Shown here: positions 15,799 to 61,350 of the stretch, piece after piece
Layout of the letters: every line of letters begins with the position of its first letter
Position numbering within the stretch: the first letter of the stretch is position 1
From: Fodinisporobacter ferrooxydans
Lineage (GTDB): Bacteria; Bacillota; Bacilli; Tumebacillales; MYW30-H2
DNA length: 64,000 nucleotides
Assembly: GCF_022818495.1 (NCBI RefSeq)
Contig: NZ_CP089291.1
Coordinates: forward strand, 4,295,501-4,359,500
Direction of reading: 5' to 3'
Made by a program: the position numbers and the translations under genes
The notes under the pieces: generated by a model
Databases searched by the model: none
Seen by the model: the letters and a program-made list of their open reading frames with translations, nothing else
Told to the model about the DNA's origin: nothing

Positions 15799-15838
15799 CT
15801 AATATGTGAATTTGTGTACAAAATTTTATAAGTGTGAG

Positions 15839-15945
15839 TGTTCAAAAAGTGGTCAAGTAAGACACGTGGAGTTTTGACTACTTTTTGTACGAAAATAACA
15901 TTTTCATGTGATGCGGTGGCTGAAAGGCCACATAAGTTTTGAACA
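15839..15945 (-). repeat. Dispersed MITE-like repeat, copy 1 (internally deleted)
   Basis: Begins TGTTCAAAAAGTGG like the right end of the complete copy at 61051-61195 (reverse orientation). It loses about 70 bases of the centre (junction at GACAC/GTGGAG near 15866), then continues into the other end (GAGTTTTGACTACTTTTTG). After that a 50-odd base module with a GTGGC/GCCAC hairpin is inserted before the terminal GAACA. The same module occurs in copy 3. This copy lies in the menA leader and ends nine bases before the menA ribosome binding site. Confidence 0.75.
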
Positions 15946-15969
15946 TCCTCAATAAAAGGAGCGTTGTCG

Positions 15970-23986: not shown

Positions 23987-24041
23987 CTTTTTGGGATTCG
24001 GCAAAGCAATCCGCCGTGGAGTTTTGACTACTTTTTGAACA
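23987..24041 (-). repeat. Dispersed MITE-like repeat, copy 2 (truncated)
   Basis: Matches the reverse complement of the left half of the complete copy at 61051-61195: CTTTTTGGGATTCGGCAAAGC, then GTGGAGTTTTGACTACTTTTTGAACA. The far half is missing. The terminal part lies directly upstream of ppa and supplies the -35 hexamer of its promoter. Confidence 0.8.
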
Positions 24042-24052
24042 TCCTCTATAAT
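24024..24052 (+). promoter_or_regulatory. ppa: Sigma-A promoter of ppa, partly made by the repeat
   Basis: TTGACT (24024-24029), exactly 17 bases, then TATAAT (24047-24052). The -35 hexamer and most of the spacer belong to repeat copy 2; TATAAT lies just outside the repeat end (ATCCTC flank). Transcription would begin near 24059, about 39 bases before the ATG. Confidence 0.8.
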
Positions 24053-32176: not shown

Positions 32177-34090
32177 ATGTCCGGCTTTTTCTCCTGCACA
32201 AACTCCGGCAAAAAAAGGAAATTTCCATACTTTTCTATCTGGACACTTGCAGCGCTATTCAGTCTGTATGGCTCGCATGTATCCTACGCGGATAGTACTG
32301 TTGCTACATCCGCTACACCAGCCACACCAGCCACACCAGCCACACCAGCCACACCAGCCACACCAGCCACACCAGCCACACCAGCCACACCAGCTACACC
32401 AGCTACACCAGCTACACCATTTCGGATCATCCAGTATCCGACATCCAATAATTTTTACCAATCGATCAACGGGGCTCTCTACCATGTTCTAGGCACGCCG
32501 GAATTGCCTCAAGAGTCGTTCTACGTCGGGAAATCGCCCGCTTTCATACAGGATGGACAAATATATGTACGCAATTCTAGTCATCAATTTTATCGGCGGG
32601 ATCCGGATGGGGACCACCTGGTTGGCACCTACGAACCGGAGTTTGAAACACTGGATTTACGTTTGAAAAGTCCGATTCAAGCATCTGCTATCAATGCTTT
32701 TATCGCCAGCCACAGCCCGAATAGCCCTTTAATCGGCCTTGGACAAGCGTTTGTTGACGCGCAATCAAAATTCGGTGTGAATGCGGAATATTTGGCTGCA
32801 CATGCCATTTTGGAAAGCAATTATGGAACATCCGTCATTGCGCGGGACAAAAACAACTTGTTTGGCTATCAGGCATATGATGTTGATCCATATGGCAGTG
32901 CCGCCCATTTTGATTCTTTTACAGACGCCATCAACTACGAAGCATACTTTGTCCGAAAACAATACCTGGACGCCAACGGTCAATGGTTTGGCGGAAGTCC
33001 TACCCTTGACGGAATGAATGTACACTATGCAAGCGATCCGTACTGGGCAGAGAAAATAGCAGGCATCATGAATCAGATGTACGCCTACCAGACGACAGTT
33101 TACAGTCAGGAACAGCCTTTGCCGCTGATTGCAGCCAAGCCTGCCGGTCCGACTCCGGACTCCGTGCAATCTGTGATTCAAAAAACCGTCCCGATGACAG
33201 CCAGTGGAGTCACCACAGATCAGGTCAATTTCCGGCAAGCGCCTTCCCTTGACAGTTCGATTTACCGCGTGTTATCCGGCGGTACGAAACTTGCGGTAAT
33301 CGGTCATTCAGGCGCTTGGTATGAAGTAAAAGTCGGTTCCCAAACCGGTTGGATTTTCCAAGACTACATCCAATTGACAAATGATTCATCCGATTCGGCG
33401 AATCAAAACACAGGATCAAGTCCAGCTGCGAATACCACATCCGGAAATGGTTCAAATGCAAATACTGCCGGAACAACCGGCAGCGGTTCCCCAACCGGCA
33501 TTGCAAGTCCGGAGATCACGACGCCGCCAGTTCCGACAACACCGCCCATTTCCTTAAATGGCGATACGACGGATAACGTAAATTTCCGCAAGGGACCATC
33601 GTTGACTGCAGCTACATATGGGGTGTTAAGCAAGGGAACCAAAGTAACCATTCTCGGTTTGCAACAAGATTGGTATCACGTCCAAATCAACGATCAGGTA
33701 GGCTGGATCAATAAGAATTACGTGGAATTGAATCGCACGCATCAGGGATTGACCGTATTTGTGAATGGTACGGAACAAAGCTACAATCCATCGCCAATCA
33801 TCGAAAATGATCGTACATTGGTTCCCTTGCGTGCCGTATTCGAAACATTGGGAGCAAAAATCAACTGGAATCAAGCAACACAAACCGTTACAGCTTTCAA
33901 AGGCCAAACCAATATCGTCCTAAAAATCGGATCATCAACTGCCTATGTGAATGGAAAGCCGATTCAACTGGATGTGCAGGCACATACCCTGCAAAATCGA
34001 ACAATGGTTCCATTGCGGTTTGTATCGGATGCTCTTGGAGCCAATATCAGTTGGGATGGATCGACAGAGAGCATTTTTATAACATCCTGA
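32177..34090 (+). CDS. Modular surface glucosaminidase with SH3b and copper-amine-oxidase-like domains
   Basis: A 637-residue exported cell-wall protein. Order: signal peptide (about 1-40, basic KKRK then hydrophobic [12 protein letters not shown]), twelve perfect Ala-Thr-Pro repeats (about 46-81), a linker domain, an endo-N-acetylglucosaminidase domain (about 175-320; [30 protein letters not shown] with the catalytic Glu), two SH3b wall-binding domains (about 340-400 and 465-525; [12 protein letters not shown] and [12 protein letters not shown]) joined by a Ser/Asn/Gly/Pro linker, and a C-terminal copper amine oxidase N-domain-like module ([16 protein letters not shown] and [15 protein letters not shown]). 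It cleaves glycan strands of peptidoglycan. The ATG at 32177 follows GGGGG; the upstream frame from 32135 lacks a signal. Confidence 0.88.
32312..32419 (+). repeat. Twelve tandem 9-bp units encoding Ala-Thr-Pro
   Basis: Twelve uninterrupted units: one GCTACACCA, eight GCCACACCA, three GCTACACCA. The unit is a multiple of three, so slippage would change the length of the stalk without breaking the frame. The Pro/Thr-rich repeat probably spans the cell wall. Confidence 0.95.
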
Positions 34091-34193: not shown

Positions 34194-34197
34194 ACAA

Positions 34198-34319
34198 GTA
34201 CACTCCGTCGCCTATTCGCGCTTCGGCTTCGCACTTCTTGTGTCTTGCTTCACCACTTTTTGTACGAAAATAACATTTTCATGTGATGCGGTGGCTGAAA
34301 GGCCACATAAGTTTGAACA
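34198..34319 (+). repeat. Dispersed MITE-like repeat, copy 3 (truncated, with module)
   Basis: Starts at GTACACTCCGTCGCC, matching the right half of the complete copy in the same orientation through CTTGTGTCTTGCTTCACCACTTTTTG. The same inserted module as copy 1 follows (TACGAAAATAACATTTTCATG and the GTGGC/GCCAC hairpin), then TGAACA. It lies between two convergent genes, so it is not a promoter donor here. Confidence 0.75.
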
Positions 34320-34320
34320 C

Positions 34321-35232
34321 TTACTTATAGAGATGCTGGTAGTATTCCTCAAGTGTCCAGCCGTTTTTCTGCAACAGCTTGGCGACATCTTTCCCGACGT
34401 ATCGGATGTGCCACGGTTCGTATTGGTATCCTGTAATCGACTCTTTGTTTTTGGGATACCTTATTACAAAGCCATATTCGTATGCATGTTGCGCCAACCA
34501 TTTGGCAGCCGGCAGCTTCGCAAACCCGTCTTCTACCGCATATTGTCCCGTGCTGTCCGAAACATCAATCGCAAGTCCTGTTTGATGTTCGCTTGTTCCG
34601 GGTTTTGCACTGAAGGTATTTGCTGCTTGTACACCTTGTGTAGCCACGTATTGATCGTAAACCGTTTGCTGCGTGGCATAAGACCGGTATGCCGATACGC
34701 CATAGATATAGATTCCATCCTTTTTCGCTCCGGCAACAAGTTGTACCAAAGCATCTGCCGCCACTTTCCGCATCAAATGAATTTCCGGGTTCCCCTGATA
34801 GAGAAACGGAATATTCGGAGTGACAAGATCGGGCGGTACATAGTTATCCGGCAACGCATTATATTTATTGACCAAGACCAAGATACTTTCGGGGTTTGAA
34901 ACGACTTGTATCTTTGCAGGATTGAAATTCGGCTTGGCCGTATTCATATTGGCTTTCGGGGCAGCCGTCCCGCCGTTGATAGTATTGTTACCGGCAATGC
35001 TGTTGCTGGTATCGTTATGATTGCTAATACTGCTGCCGGCAACCGCAGAAACCGGGTTACTTTTGGCTTCCACCGGACTCATTGTGGCATTCGATTTGCT
35101 TGTTCCATTATGTAAGTGCAAAAATTCCGAAGTTACTTGATTAAAATTCTGGCTGAATTGATTACTGCAACCGACAAGCAAAGTTCCTAGAATCCATATT
35201 GCAGCGAATTGTGCATATCTGTGTTTTCTCAC
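34321..35232 (-). CDS. VanY-type D-Ala-D-Ala carboxypeptidase lipoprotein
   Basis: A 303-residue lipoprotein. A signal with lipobox LLVGC puts the lipidated Cys at residue 22. A 90-residue Ser/Asn-rich linker follows, then an M15B (VanY/DdcY) peptidase domain from about residue 110. The zinc site is seen as SAYRSYATQ, GTSEHQTGLAIDVSD (His and Asp ligands) and EPWHIRYVG (final His). It trims the terminal D-alanine of peptidoglycan stem peptides. It starts at a GTG with GGGAG eight bases upstream. No vanR/S, vanA or vanX genes are near, so it is a wall-maturation enzyme rather than a resistance system. Confidence 0.9.
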   Translation of the reverse strand: MRKHRYAQFAAIWILGTLLVGCSNQFSQNFNQVTSEFLHLHNGTSKSNATMSPVEAKSNPVSAVAGSSISNHNDTSNSIAGNNTINGGTAAPKANMNTAKPNFNPAKIQVVSNPESILVLVNKYNALPDNYVPPDLVTPNIPFLYQGNPEIHLMRKVAADALVQLVAGAKKDGIYIYGVSAYRSYATQQTVYDQYVATQGVQAANTFSAKPGTSEHQTGLAIDVSDSTGQYAVEDGFAKLPAAKWLAQHAYEYGFVIRYPKNKESITGYQYEPWHIRYVGKDVAKLLQKNGWTLEEYYQHLYK

Positions 35233-50982: not shown

Positions 50983-51017
50983 TACAATGTGCCCCCTTCT
51001 CCATCGGAATCGATACT

Positions 51018-51081
51018 GCTTAATTGCTTAATTGCTTAATTGCTTAATTGCTTAATTGCTTAATTGCTTAATTGCTTAATT
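51018..51081. repeat. Eight tandem copies of an 8-bp unit in the permease leader
   Basis: Eight perfect GCTTAATT units, 36 to 99 bases upstream of the permease ATG and downstream of its predicted promoter. On the transcript it reads AAUUAAGC. Such simple repeats change copy number by slippage and could alter leader length or structure. The rest of the 434-base gap holds the lctP and adeR upstream regions. Confidence 0.95.
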
Positions 51082-51136
51082 GAATTGTATCAAGAACTTC
51101 CGCTTTCCCCTTTCCGCTCACCTCCCTGATATTCAT

Positions 51137-52652: not shown

Positions 52653-52743
52653 ACTTGTTAAAATACACAAACCTATTGCGAGTTTTTCATTTTTCTCAAC
52701 AAAGAAAAAATCCCCCGTCTCCCCTATACTTTATATAAGTGAT

Positions 52744-52854
52744 TATTCAAAAAATGGTTAAGCTAGACACAAGGAGATGAGTTGAAGCACGAAAAAGTCT
52801 GAGAAGTGTACGTGTTCGGTGCATGATAGGGCTTTTTGGGATTCGGCAAAGCAA
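52744..52854 (-). repeat. Dispersed MITE-like repeat, copy 4 (decayed)
   Basis: Follows the reverse complement of the complete copy from its TTCAAAAAATGG end through GACACAAGGAG, GAAGCACGAAAA, GTGTACGTGTTCGGT and CTTTTTGGGATTCGGCAAAGCAA. It stops before the terminal GTGGAG...GAACA part. It has many point changes. Its inner end is 18 bases before the ald ATG, so the ald leader consists largely of this element. Confidence 0.75.
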
Positions 52855-52872
52855 TCATTGAGGGGGATATTT

Positions 52873-54035: not shown

Positions 54036-54180
54036 GTCGGAATCCTACTGGTAAGCAGTGTAGGTACGATCTCATCAGAAAGCCGTATGAGGGAAAACCT
54101 CACGTACGGTTTGTTGAGGAAGGGATGAAGAGTAAAGTGCGGGTTCTCGCCCGCAAGTGAAATTCATTCCTTTACCCTAT
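54036..54180 (+). mobile_element. Group II intron remnant (3' end: domains V and VI)
   Basis: Domain V is at 54080-54112: AAGCCGTA pairs with TACGGTTT, with the CG bulge region and a GAAA-capped TGAGG/CCTCA upper stem. This is the conserved catalytic hairpin of group II introns. Domain VI follows (TGCGGG/CCCGCA inner stem at about 54138-54155, AGGGATGAA/TTCATTCCT outer stem), and CCCTAT near 54180 fits a 3' splice end. No reverse transcriptase or domains I-IV are present between ald and here, so it is a dead fragment. Confidence 0.85.
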
Positions 54181-61039: not shown

Positions 61040-61068
61040 CTTTTAGAGGATGTTCAAAAAGTAGTCAA
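61040..61068 (-). promoter_or_regulatory. Promoter-like pair at the edge of repeat copy 5
   Basis: Minus strand: TTGACT (61068-61063) inside the repeat, 17 bases, TAAAAG (61045-61040) outside it. The layout equals that of the ppa promoter at copy 2. It points to the methyltransferase gene 57 bases downstream. Confidence 0.45.
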
Positions 61069-61195
61069 AACTCCACGGCGGTTTGCTTTGCCGAATCCCA
61101 AAAAGGCTTACTCATGTACCAAACACGTACACTCCGTCGCCTTTTCGTGCTTCGGCTTCGCACTCCTTGTGTCTTACTTAACCACTTTTTGAACA
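61051..61195 (+). repeat. Dispersed MITE-like repeat, copy 5 (complete)
   Basis: 145 bp bounded by TGTTCAAAAAGT and ACTTTTTGAACA, a perfect 12-bp terminal inverted repeat that extends with mismatches to about 17 bp. The interior reads GTTTGCTTTGCCGAATCCC, then GTACACTCCGTCGCCTTTTCG and GCTTCGGCTTCGCACTCC. It has no coding capacity or transposase. It fills most of the 367-base gap between the methyltransferase and MFS genes; the remainder (61196-61350) shows nothing recognisable. Confidence 0.85.
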
Positions 61196-61350
61196 CGCAC
61201 TTTTATCCAGTTATCTGTAAAAAAGAAAAACAACAATCATTTTGTCATCATATGCCCGATTCGGTTGAAGTACAATACTGTCGGATTCTGCGAATGCACG
61301 ATGCGTGTATATCCTTTTTTGTCAAAACAGTACAAAACTCTTCGACCGAT

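What the first reader, a model, noticed from the sequence alone, without database searches (positions are those of the whole stretch)
61051..61195. Dispersed 145-bp MITE-like repeat, five copies in 64 kb
Seen: one complete copy (61051-61195) with 12-bp perfect terminal inverted repeats (TGTTCAAAAAGT / ACTTTTTGAACA) and four partial copies at 15839-15945, 23987-24041, 34198-34319 and 52744-52854. Shared inner blocks include GGGATTCGGCAAAGC, GTACACTCCGTCGCC and GACACAAGGAG. All copies are intergenic. Five copies in 64 kb implies very many in the genome. No transposase is encoded, so it would depend on an enzyme elsewhere. I do not recognise it as a named family.
Basis: seen in the sequence. Interest (0 to 1): 0.7.

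Follow-up and report, generated by a model that had tools for sequence, protein, structure and literature searches.

The report
Mobile hairpin repeat with conserved core
The repeat is a small transposable element without genes, present in many copies in this bacterium and with relatives in other Bacillales; it looks like a miniature insertion sequence and carries a hairpin core whose shape has been kept while its letters changed.

Summary
The repeat is real and is a MITE, but the true element is 155 bp (61046-61200), not 145: GAGGA-TGTTCAAAAAGT ... ACTTTTTGAACA-CGCAC between 5-bp duplications (TTTTA here). Of 107 distinct own-genome insertions read with both ends, 79 have perfect 5-bp duplications (7.4% in shuffled pairs), mostly at C-TNNNA-G. 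The end motif occurs 255 times in the 4.86-Mb genome (control 1). The left-end pattern occurs in 23 of 398 Bacilli genomes, own included; 33 of 45 distinct non-own hits have a partner end within 320 bp. The likely driver, inferred, is a DUF772/DDE_Tnp_1 transposase clade (IS1182-like but below that family's cut-off), with two damaged copies here; its elements share the G-G--TGTTCAAAAAG ends, 5-bp duplication and target rule. Two further points look new. On one strand the interior folds into a long hairpin with an apical motif (CG-GA-stem-GA-G) whose helices covary across genera; it is not found in the driver's elements. And a 52-76-bp hairpin insert sits at the same spot and orientation inside MITE ends at 19 of 19 loci, two in the window. 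No autonomous copy with exactly matching ends was found; no movement or function was shown.

The parts
61046..61200 (+). Complete 155-bp MITE (left tip GAGGA, right tip CGCAC)
   Evidence: 77 of 107 held own-genome insertions are exactly 155 bp
61041..61045 (.). Target-site duplication TTTTA, left
61201..61205 (.). Target-site duplication TTTTA, right
61084..61162 (-). Conserved apical hairpin domain (model R1, 43.8 bits; this copy is a training row of the model)
15834..15950 (-). Internally deleted MITE copy, 117 bp including a nested insert; no matching duplication
15887..15939 (+). Insert X (53 bp, two hairpins) inside the MITE's left-type end
23987..24046 (-). MITE left half (truncated), 98% identical over 55 bp
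34194..34324 (+). MITE right half with insert X in its end
34262..34313 (+). Insert X (52 bp) inside the MITE's right-type end
52739..52854 (-). Degraded MITE copy (right end and interior, 82% identity), its inner edge close to the start of an ORF
   Evidence: not found by model R1

Best explanation
A miniature inverted-repeat transposable element moved in trans by a DDE transposase. Shown: fixed ends, 5-bp duplications at C-TNNNA-G targets, many near-identical copies, too short for a transposase gene. Inferred: the enzyme belongs to the DUF772/DDE_Tnp_1 clade whose roughly 1.6-kb elements have the same end core and target rule; it binds G-G--TGTTCAAAAAG, cuts the element out and inserts it at an AT-rich pentamer. 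Shown: the apical motif of the interior was not found in that clade's elements, and it covaries across Bacillales genera. Inferred: the hairpin is kept because a transcript of one strand does something, such as protecting or processing the RNA in which it lies.
For: Ends and duplications: 79 of 107 insertions with perfect 5-bp match, 16 with 4 of 5, 12 with less; shuffled pairs 7.4% perfect; T 91% and A 99% at the two outer positions of the 79 duplications (same counts when the partner end is chosen by distance alone). Copy number: 255 end hits, control 1. Left-end pattern in 23 of 398 Bacilli genomes, own included, control 0; 33 of 45 distinct non-own hits have a partner end within 320 bp, 11 of them with at least 4/5 flank match; of 73 hits from the species-wide scan 36 have a partner and 21 at least 4/5. 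Driver: own transposase (438 aa) with end GAGCC-TGTTCAAAAAG; second copy with GAGCC/GAGTC ends and TTTAA/TATAA flanks; homologs with TTAAT, TAACA, TATTA and TATTA 5/5 duplications; single homologs also show a GAGGT or GTGCG tip. Of 52 DDE_Tnp_1 or rve places in the genome, 46 loci (several types in many copies) were held and scanned, and only this type has such ends. Structure.
Against: No autonomous element with exactly the MITE tips and inner bases was found. In this genome the intact transposase gene lacks its right end and the copy with both ends is frameshifted. The clade was found in only 10 of 398 Bacilli genomes at E<=1e-25, query L267, and in 8 of 398 at E<=1e-60, query the own protein; none of these is a genome of group g27, which carries many of the MITEs. 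Transposase families other than DDE_Tnp_1 and rve were not searched in this genome. The end-finding script required at least 4/5 flank match, and in 12 of the 18 loci given it found no such end pair with these tips; one homolog with both tips has only a 3/5 flank match (L306). In other genomes most paired hits have poor duplications (22 of 33 below 4/5). No movement was observed.
Confidence: 0.78

Rival explanations
1. The elements are moved by a transposase family not identified here, and the likeness to the DUF772/DDE_Tnp_1 clade is only the short TGTTCAAAAAG core.
For: Inner end bases differ (MITE AGTNG, insertion sequence AGCCC or similar); no end-matched autonomous copy; clade found in only 10 of 398 genomes at E<=1e-25 against 23 of 398 with the MITE left end.
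Against: Core, tip letters G-G, 5-nt tip spacing, 5-bp duplication and C-TNNNA-G context agree, and single homologs carry GAGGT or GTGCG tips; none of the other types among the 46 loci held from this genome has such ends.
Confidence: 0.2
2. The covarying hairpin is a by-product of palindrome correction (template switching between arms), with no selected RNA function.
For: Palindromic DNA is known to mutate towards symmetry (recalled); no transcript was tested here; one representative element (L144) folds little better than its shuffles on either strand (z -1.1).
Against: A non-complementary internal loop and a G-U pair (19 of 23 rows) are kept, and the strand starting with the GTGCG end folds more stably in 12 of 13 representative elements (not all independent); arm correction alone would not favour G-U on one strand. 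The GA letters of the loop and the upper stem were required by the finder, so they are not independent evidence.
Confidence: 0.35
3. A bcr1-type repeat: the Bacillus cereus group element already described, or its direct homolog.
For: Similar size class, copy number, TTTAT motif and hairpin according to passages read.
Against: bcr1 is described as restricted to the B. cereus group; this element has no match in 72,556 plasmid records, some of which should carry bcr1 copies. I could not read the bcr1 sequence papers.
Confidence: 0.1

Closest known systems
bcr1 (B. cereus group repeats, group A bcr1-bcr3)
   Same: Short, dispersed, up to 130 copies, conserved secondary structure, MITE-like, TTTAT motif (passages of PMC6542083, PMC3446304, PMC2267715)
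   Different: Described as restricted to the B. cereus group; sequence and ends not compared because the source papers are not held
IS1182 family insertion sequences (NCBIfam NF033551)
   Same: The candidate driver matches this model (99.6 bits)
   Different: Below the curated cut-off of 270; the high-scoring IS1182 loci examined have different ends and flanking repeats
Bacillaceae-1 RNA (Rfam RF01690)
   Same: A structured repeat of Bacillales that lies inside relatives of this MITE in some Bacillaceae
   Different: No match in the window's element; in longer relatives it is an extra stretch of about 63-64 bp at different places
RUP, NEMIS and similar bacterial MITEs
   Same: Non-coding elements with inverted ends, mobilised by transposases that recognise them, often transcribed beside genes (passage of PMC3733652)
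   Different: Other hosts; their ends were not compared here

Membership tests
MITE | Inverted terminal repeats | tested here: met
   TGTTCAAAAAGTNGTNAA at both ends; 255 genome hits, control 1
MITE | Target-site duplication of fixed length | tested here: met
   79 of 107 perfect 5-bp; shuffled 7.4%
MITE | No transposase gene, short | tested here: met
   155 bp; 77 of 107 held copies exactly so
MITE | Same ends as an autonomous element | tested here: inconclusive
   Core, tip pattern, duplication and target rule shared; inner bases differ
IS1182 family (candidate driver) | NCBIfam NF033551 cut-off of 270 bits | tested here: not met
   99.6 bits
bcr1 | Sequence identity to the bcr1 consensus | not testable with these tools
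   Source papers not held
Bacillaceae-1 RNA | Rfam gathering score | tested here: not met
   No match in the window
IS200/IS605-derived palindromic element (for insert X) | Hairpins, no terminal repeats, fixed target and orientation (definition recalled) | tested here: inconclusive
   19 of 19 loci at one site in one orientation; two small hairpins
IS200/IS605-derived palindromic element (for insert X) | Shared ends with an autonomous HUH element | not tested

The most novel reading that the evidence does not exclude
A Bacillales-wide superfamily of mobile structured RNAs: one conserved RNA hairpin, with a fixed internal-loop motif near its tip, has been captured between insertion-sequence ends and spread across genera as MITEs; the ends in turn are the landing site of a second, site-specific hairpin parasite, and in some Bacillaceae the interior also hosts the orphan Bacillaceae-1 RNA.
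Probability: 0.4. Interest if true: 0.75.

Novelty: new variant of a known kind. Interest (0 to 1): 0.52.

Why it matters
It links a set of short repeats spread over several Bacillales genera to a candidate transposase clade, gives an exact end and target rule with which they can be annotated, places the orphan Bacillaceae-1 RNA inside mobile elements in some genomes, and offers a clear test of whether a MITE interior can be a selected RNA rather than filler between two ends.

Tried and rejected
Autonomous copy with exact ends: looked for non-MITE interiors after the end motif in the own genome, at all 46 non-own places listed (1.5 kb of flank on each side for 29 of them, up to 5 kb inward for the other 17 and for 3 fetched again), in 73 loci of the species-wide collection, in plasmids and phages and in viral contigs; none found. 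12 of 45 distinct non-own hits and 37 of 73 scan hits have no partner end within 320 bp; many of the latter look like chance. L105/L113 looked like an insertion-sequence end but lies just before a small gene, with no partner. L280 looked like an IS1182 element with MITE ends but is a short MITE beside it. Single ends in the own genome without a partner were not resolved.

Tn7-like, IS21 or IS3 ends (TG...CA at the tips; family rules recalled) were considered and dropped: the outer pentamers are part of the element. An intrinsic-terminator role was dropped from the sequence: no U run follows the hairpin. Orientation relative to flanking genes showed no clear bias (10 against 16 of 26 tandem intervals). 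The viral-contig match to insert X is in an unrelated AT-rich region; X has no plasmid match. No solved-structure match to the transposase at E<=1.

Sampling limits: the 107 insertions come from places listed (lists are capped) and from loci fetched for other reasons, some chosen because a partner end was missing, so their length mix is not a census. A place was kept if both tips matched at 3 of 5 letters or better and the ends were 34-260 bp apart.

Full report
What is there. The window is part of a 4.86-Mb genome in one contig, 46% G+C in the window. The repeat at 61051-61195 is real, but copies printed with their flanks showed that the constant part runs five bases further on each side and is then followed by matching 5-bp flanks. 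The element is therefore 61046-61200, 155 bp: GAGGATGTTCAAAAAGT...ACTTTTTGAACACGCAC, with TTTTA on both sides. The two tips differ (GAGGA and, read inwards, GTGCG): of 107 insertions 98 have GAGGA, and 74 have GTGCG, 14 GTGTG and 10 GTGAG.

Numbers. The end motif TGTTCAAAAAGTNGTNAA with up to one mismatch occurs 255 times in the genome (139 forward, 116 reverse) against 1 for the reversed control. The DNA search scored 40 copies at 98-100% identity out of 178 first-look candidates. From held stretches I could read 107 distinct insertions with both ends: 79 have a perfect 5-bp duplication, 16 match at 4 of 5, 12 at 3 or fewer; shuffled left-right pairs are perfect in 7.4%. That script kept the better-matching partner where there was a choice; choosing the nearest partner gives the same counts. 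Among the 79, the duplication begins with T in 91% and ends with A in 99%, preceded by C in 61% and followed by G in 58%. 77 of 107 are exactly 155 bp and differ from their consensus by 0-10 bases. 22 of 107 are shorter than 120 bp, down to 38 bp, little more than the two ends. Two 46-bp copies of almost identical sequence have different duplications (TAATA, TTTTA), so short forms may themselves move, though repeated deletion at the same short repeats cannot be excluded. This set is not a census.

Relatives. A DNA search of 61 genomes (own and 60 relatives) found matches only in the own genome and in G003, 75% identical over the full length, a record titled 'MAG: Bacilli bacterium' (L152). By its left-end pattern alone the superfamily is broader: GAGGNTGTTCAAAAAGTNG hits 23 of 398 Bacilli genomes, own included, control 0. 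I looked at all 46 non-own places listed (45 distinct sequences): 33 have a partner end within 320 bp, 11 of these with at least 4 of 5 flank letters matching, and 12 have no partner. A scan of one genome for each of 84,980 species, with the pattern narrowed to miss interiors already known, gave 73 loci, many in Paenibacillus, Brevibacillus and Bacillaceae; 36 have a partner end and 21 of these at least 4/5 flanks; others, for example those in Bacteroidota, mostly show no second end and look like chance. Elements of 36-285 bp with 4-5 of 5 duplications occur in Terrihalobacillus, Siminovitchia, Pseudogracilibacillus, Aquibacillus and Paenibacillus. None of the paired ends encloses a transposase gene.

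The likely driver. In the own genome, 36 places match DDE_Tnp_1 and 16 match rve; 46 loci of these were held and examined for ends. One type has a MITE-like end: a 438-aa protein with DUF772 and DDE_Tnp_1 domains, whose ORF starts 116 bp inside the end GAGCCTGTTCAAAAAGCCC. This copy has lost its right end: its sequence stops agreeing with copy 2 beyond the gene, and an ORF resembling an IS630-type transposase (my reading, not tested) follows. The second copy (G000:C1:320332-321963, 1632 bp) has both ends, GAGCC/GAGTC, flanks TTTAA/TATAA, and a gene split between two frames. For homologs elsewhere I used a script that looks for inverted ends with at least 4 of 5 matching flank letters and does not use the MITE motif. 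Its best-scoring pair was GAGCC/GAGCT with TTAAT/TTAAT (L262), GAGCG/GAGCG with TATTA/TATTA (L267) and GAGCG/GAGGT with TATTA/TATTA (Alicyclobacillus plasmid, L301); in 12 of the 18 loci given (some overlap) it returned no pair with these tips. By eye, L263 has TAACA/TAACA, L304 has tips GAGCG/GTGCG with TTTCA/TTTAA, and L306 has TTTTA/TTAAA, 3 of 5. Thus tip pattern, core, 5-bp duplication and C-TNNNA-G context agree with the MITEs. The inner bases do not (AGCCC against AGTNG), so an exact partner remains unknown. The protein scores 99.6 bits to the IS1182 model, cut-off 270, so I do not file it as IS1182.

The interior is a structured core. The strand that begins with the GTGCG end folds into one hairpin (145-bp version -63.8 kcal/mol, z -7.9; other strand -44.9, z -6.1). 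In 13 representative elements, not all independent, that strand is the more stable in 12; one of them, L144, folds little better than shuffles on either strand (z -1.1). Near the tip lies a motif: C-G, G-A, a stem of mostly 6-8 pairs with a small loop, then G-A-G. A finder that required the stem and both GA letters found it at score 16 or more in 25 of 34 non-own elements of at least 130 bp (a 26th scored 15), in 1 of 34 on the other strand and in 1.8% of 340 mononucleotide shuffles. Many of the 34 come from one genus. The 8 without a match are a deleted copy (L116), an element with an insert in its loop (L155), one element read from its other end (L075), a doubtful one (L292) and four others (L144, L153, L184, L203). 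The 23 rows of alignment A2 are 21 of the 26 segments plus this window's copy and G003; they were chosen for having the motif, so the 100% pairing of the upper stem is by construction. Helix 1 was not used by the finder, and the two inner pairs of helix 2 only added to its score. Over helices 1 and 2 alone 89.1% of cells pair against 56.9% in shuffles, and the covariation score is 0.752 against 0.195 (0 of 500 shuffles for both); the count of pairs changed on both sides is not unusual (218 of 500). Slid controls reach at most 0.315, but the structure was predicted on this same alignment, which favours it. In the full structure 10 of 14 pairs show changes on both sides (51 of 500 shuffles reach that; none reaches the covariation score of 0.664). 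Among 77 own copies, 15 cells show double changes, 14 of them in pairs 46-110 and 61-95, while 74 cells are broken.

A covariance model built from A2 found 16 matches at E<=0.1 among 76 further loci. Thirteen of the 15 that I checked lie next to a MITE end, twelve of them at 48 bits or more; L152 is the same place as a training row, L091 and L124 are one place, and several come from the same group as training rows. Two weak matches have no convincing end and one (L209) was not checked. In the insertion-sequence loci of the driver clade the model found nothing; in that call its only match was this window's copy, itself a training row, and it missed the degraded copy at 52 kb. In 39 other loci it found nothing. 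It matches other full own copies at 27.9-45.6 bits. So the core is not a deletion product of the insertion sequences seen here. The loci were mostly fetched because they carry MITE ends or transposases, so I cannot say how often the motif occurs elsewhere.

Rfam. The window's element matches no family at gathering score and nothing better than E 8.8; a relative from group g27 and a Terrihalobacillus relative give only sub-threshold matches to animal families or the like. Longer relatives contain Bacillaceae-1 RNA: 8 matches in 4 of 10 loci searched (Terrihalobacillus, Terrilactibacillus, Siminovitchia). Of the five whose surroundings I printed, three are inside elements with 5/5 duplications (L167 twice, L200 once), one (L167:6168-6234) is in a copy with one end left, and one (L200:3221-3285) shows no MITE ends; the other three were not examined. 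The 218-bp and 217-bp elements exceed the 154-bp type by about the length of that RNA, and it sits at different places in the two. The paper that defined the RNA lists it for Bacillaceae as an RNA, probably not cis-regulatory (one table passage read, PMC2864571); another suggests that its reverse complement could bind CsrA (passages read, PMC4333381).

Insert X. Two window copies share a 52-53-bp insert inside ACTTTTTGAACA. Genome-wide the pattern TACGAAAATAACATTTT with up to one mismatch gives 21 hits (control 0) at 19 loci, two loci having a duplicated unit. At 19 of 19 the insert lies between a CTTTTT-like stretch and a GAACA-like tip, in the same orientation; 10 are left-type and 9 right-type ends (the table stopped at an error, so the last loci were read by eye). 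There are three sequence types, one with an internal duplication. In L319, L320 and L328 the host MITE keeps a 5/5 duplication; at several loci the other MITE end was not found. X has two small hairpins and no inverted ends that I could see, as IS200/IS605-derived elements do (recalled); I had no search left to look for the enzyme. Spread by gene conversion between ends is the alternative.

Literature. Searches for the end letters, for MITEs with Brevibacillus, Paenibacillus or Bacillales, and for non-autonomous IS1182 elements listed nothing that describes this element (listings only). The library holds only open-licence papers. bcr1 is the nearest described element in kind (passages in PMC6542083, PMC3446304 and PMC2267715); its own papers are not held.

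Judgement. That this is a MITE: near certain. That the DUF772/DDE_Tnp_1 clade drives it: likely, not proven. That the core is a selected RNA: plausible, about two in five. The mobile repeat itself is an ordinary kind of thing; its breadth, structured interior and nested parasite make it more than that.

Noticed in passing
window 15887-15939 and 34262-34313; 19 loci genome-wide (L315-L335): A 52-76-bp hairpin insert sits at one fixed position and orientation inside MITE ends at 19 of 19 loci, in three sequence types.
   Followed up: partly
L167, L200, L184, L207: Rfam Bacillaceae-1 RNA: 8 matches, at least four of them inside relatives of this MITE, at different positions.
   Followed up: partly
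window 54078-54180 (+): Group II intron match (Rfam RF00029, 47.9 bits).
   Followed up: no
window 51009-51096: Tandem array of an 8-bp unit (TGCTTAAT).
   Followed up: no
window 32285-32428: 9-bp tandem repeats (GCCACACCA type) inside a 651-aa ORF.
   Followed up: no
window 52739-52854: A degraded MITE copy ends just upstream of an apparent ATG start near 52870 and may supply a leader.
   Followed up: no
L208 3711-4036 (Paenibacillus cellulosilyticus): A 285-bp and a 36-bp element lie side by side with the pentamer TTATA between them.
   Followed up: no
G000:C1:4266202-4267515 and 320332-321963: Candidate driver: one copy has an intact gene but no right end, the other has both ends but a frameshift.
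   Followed up: partly
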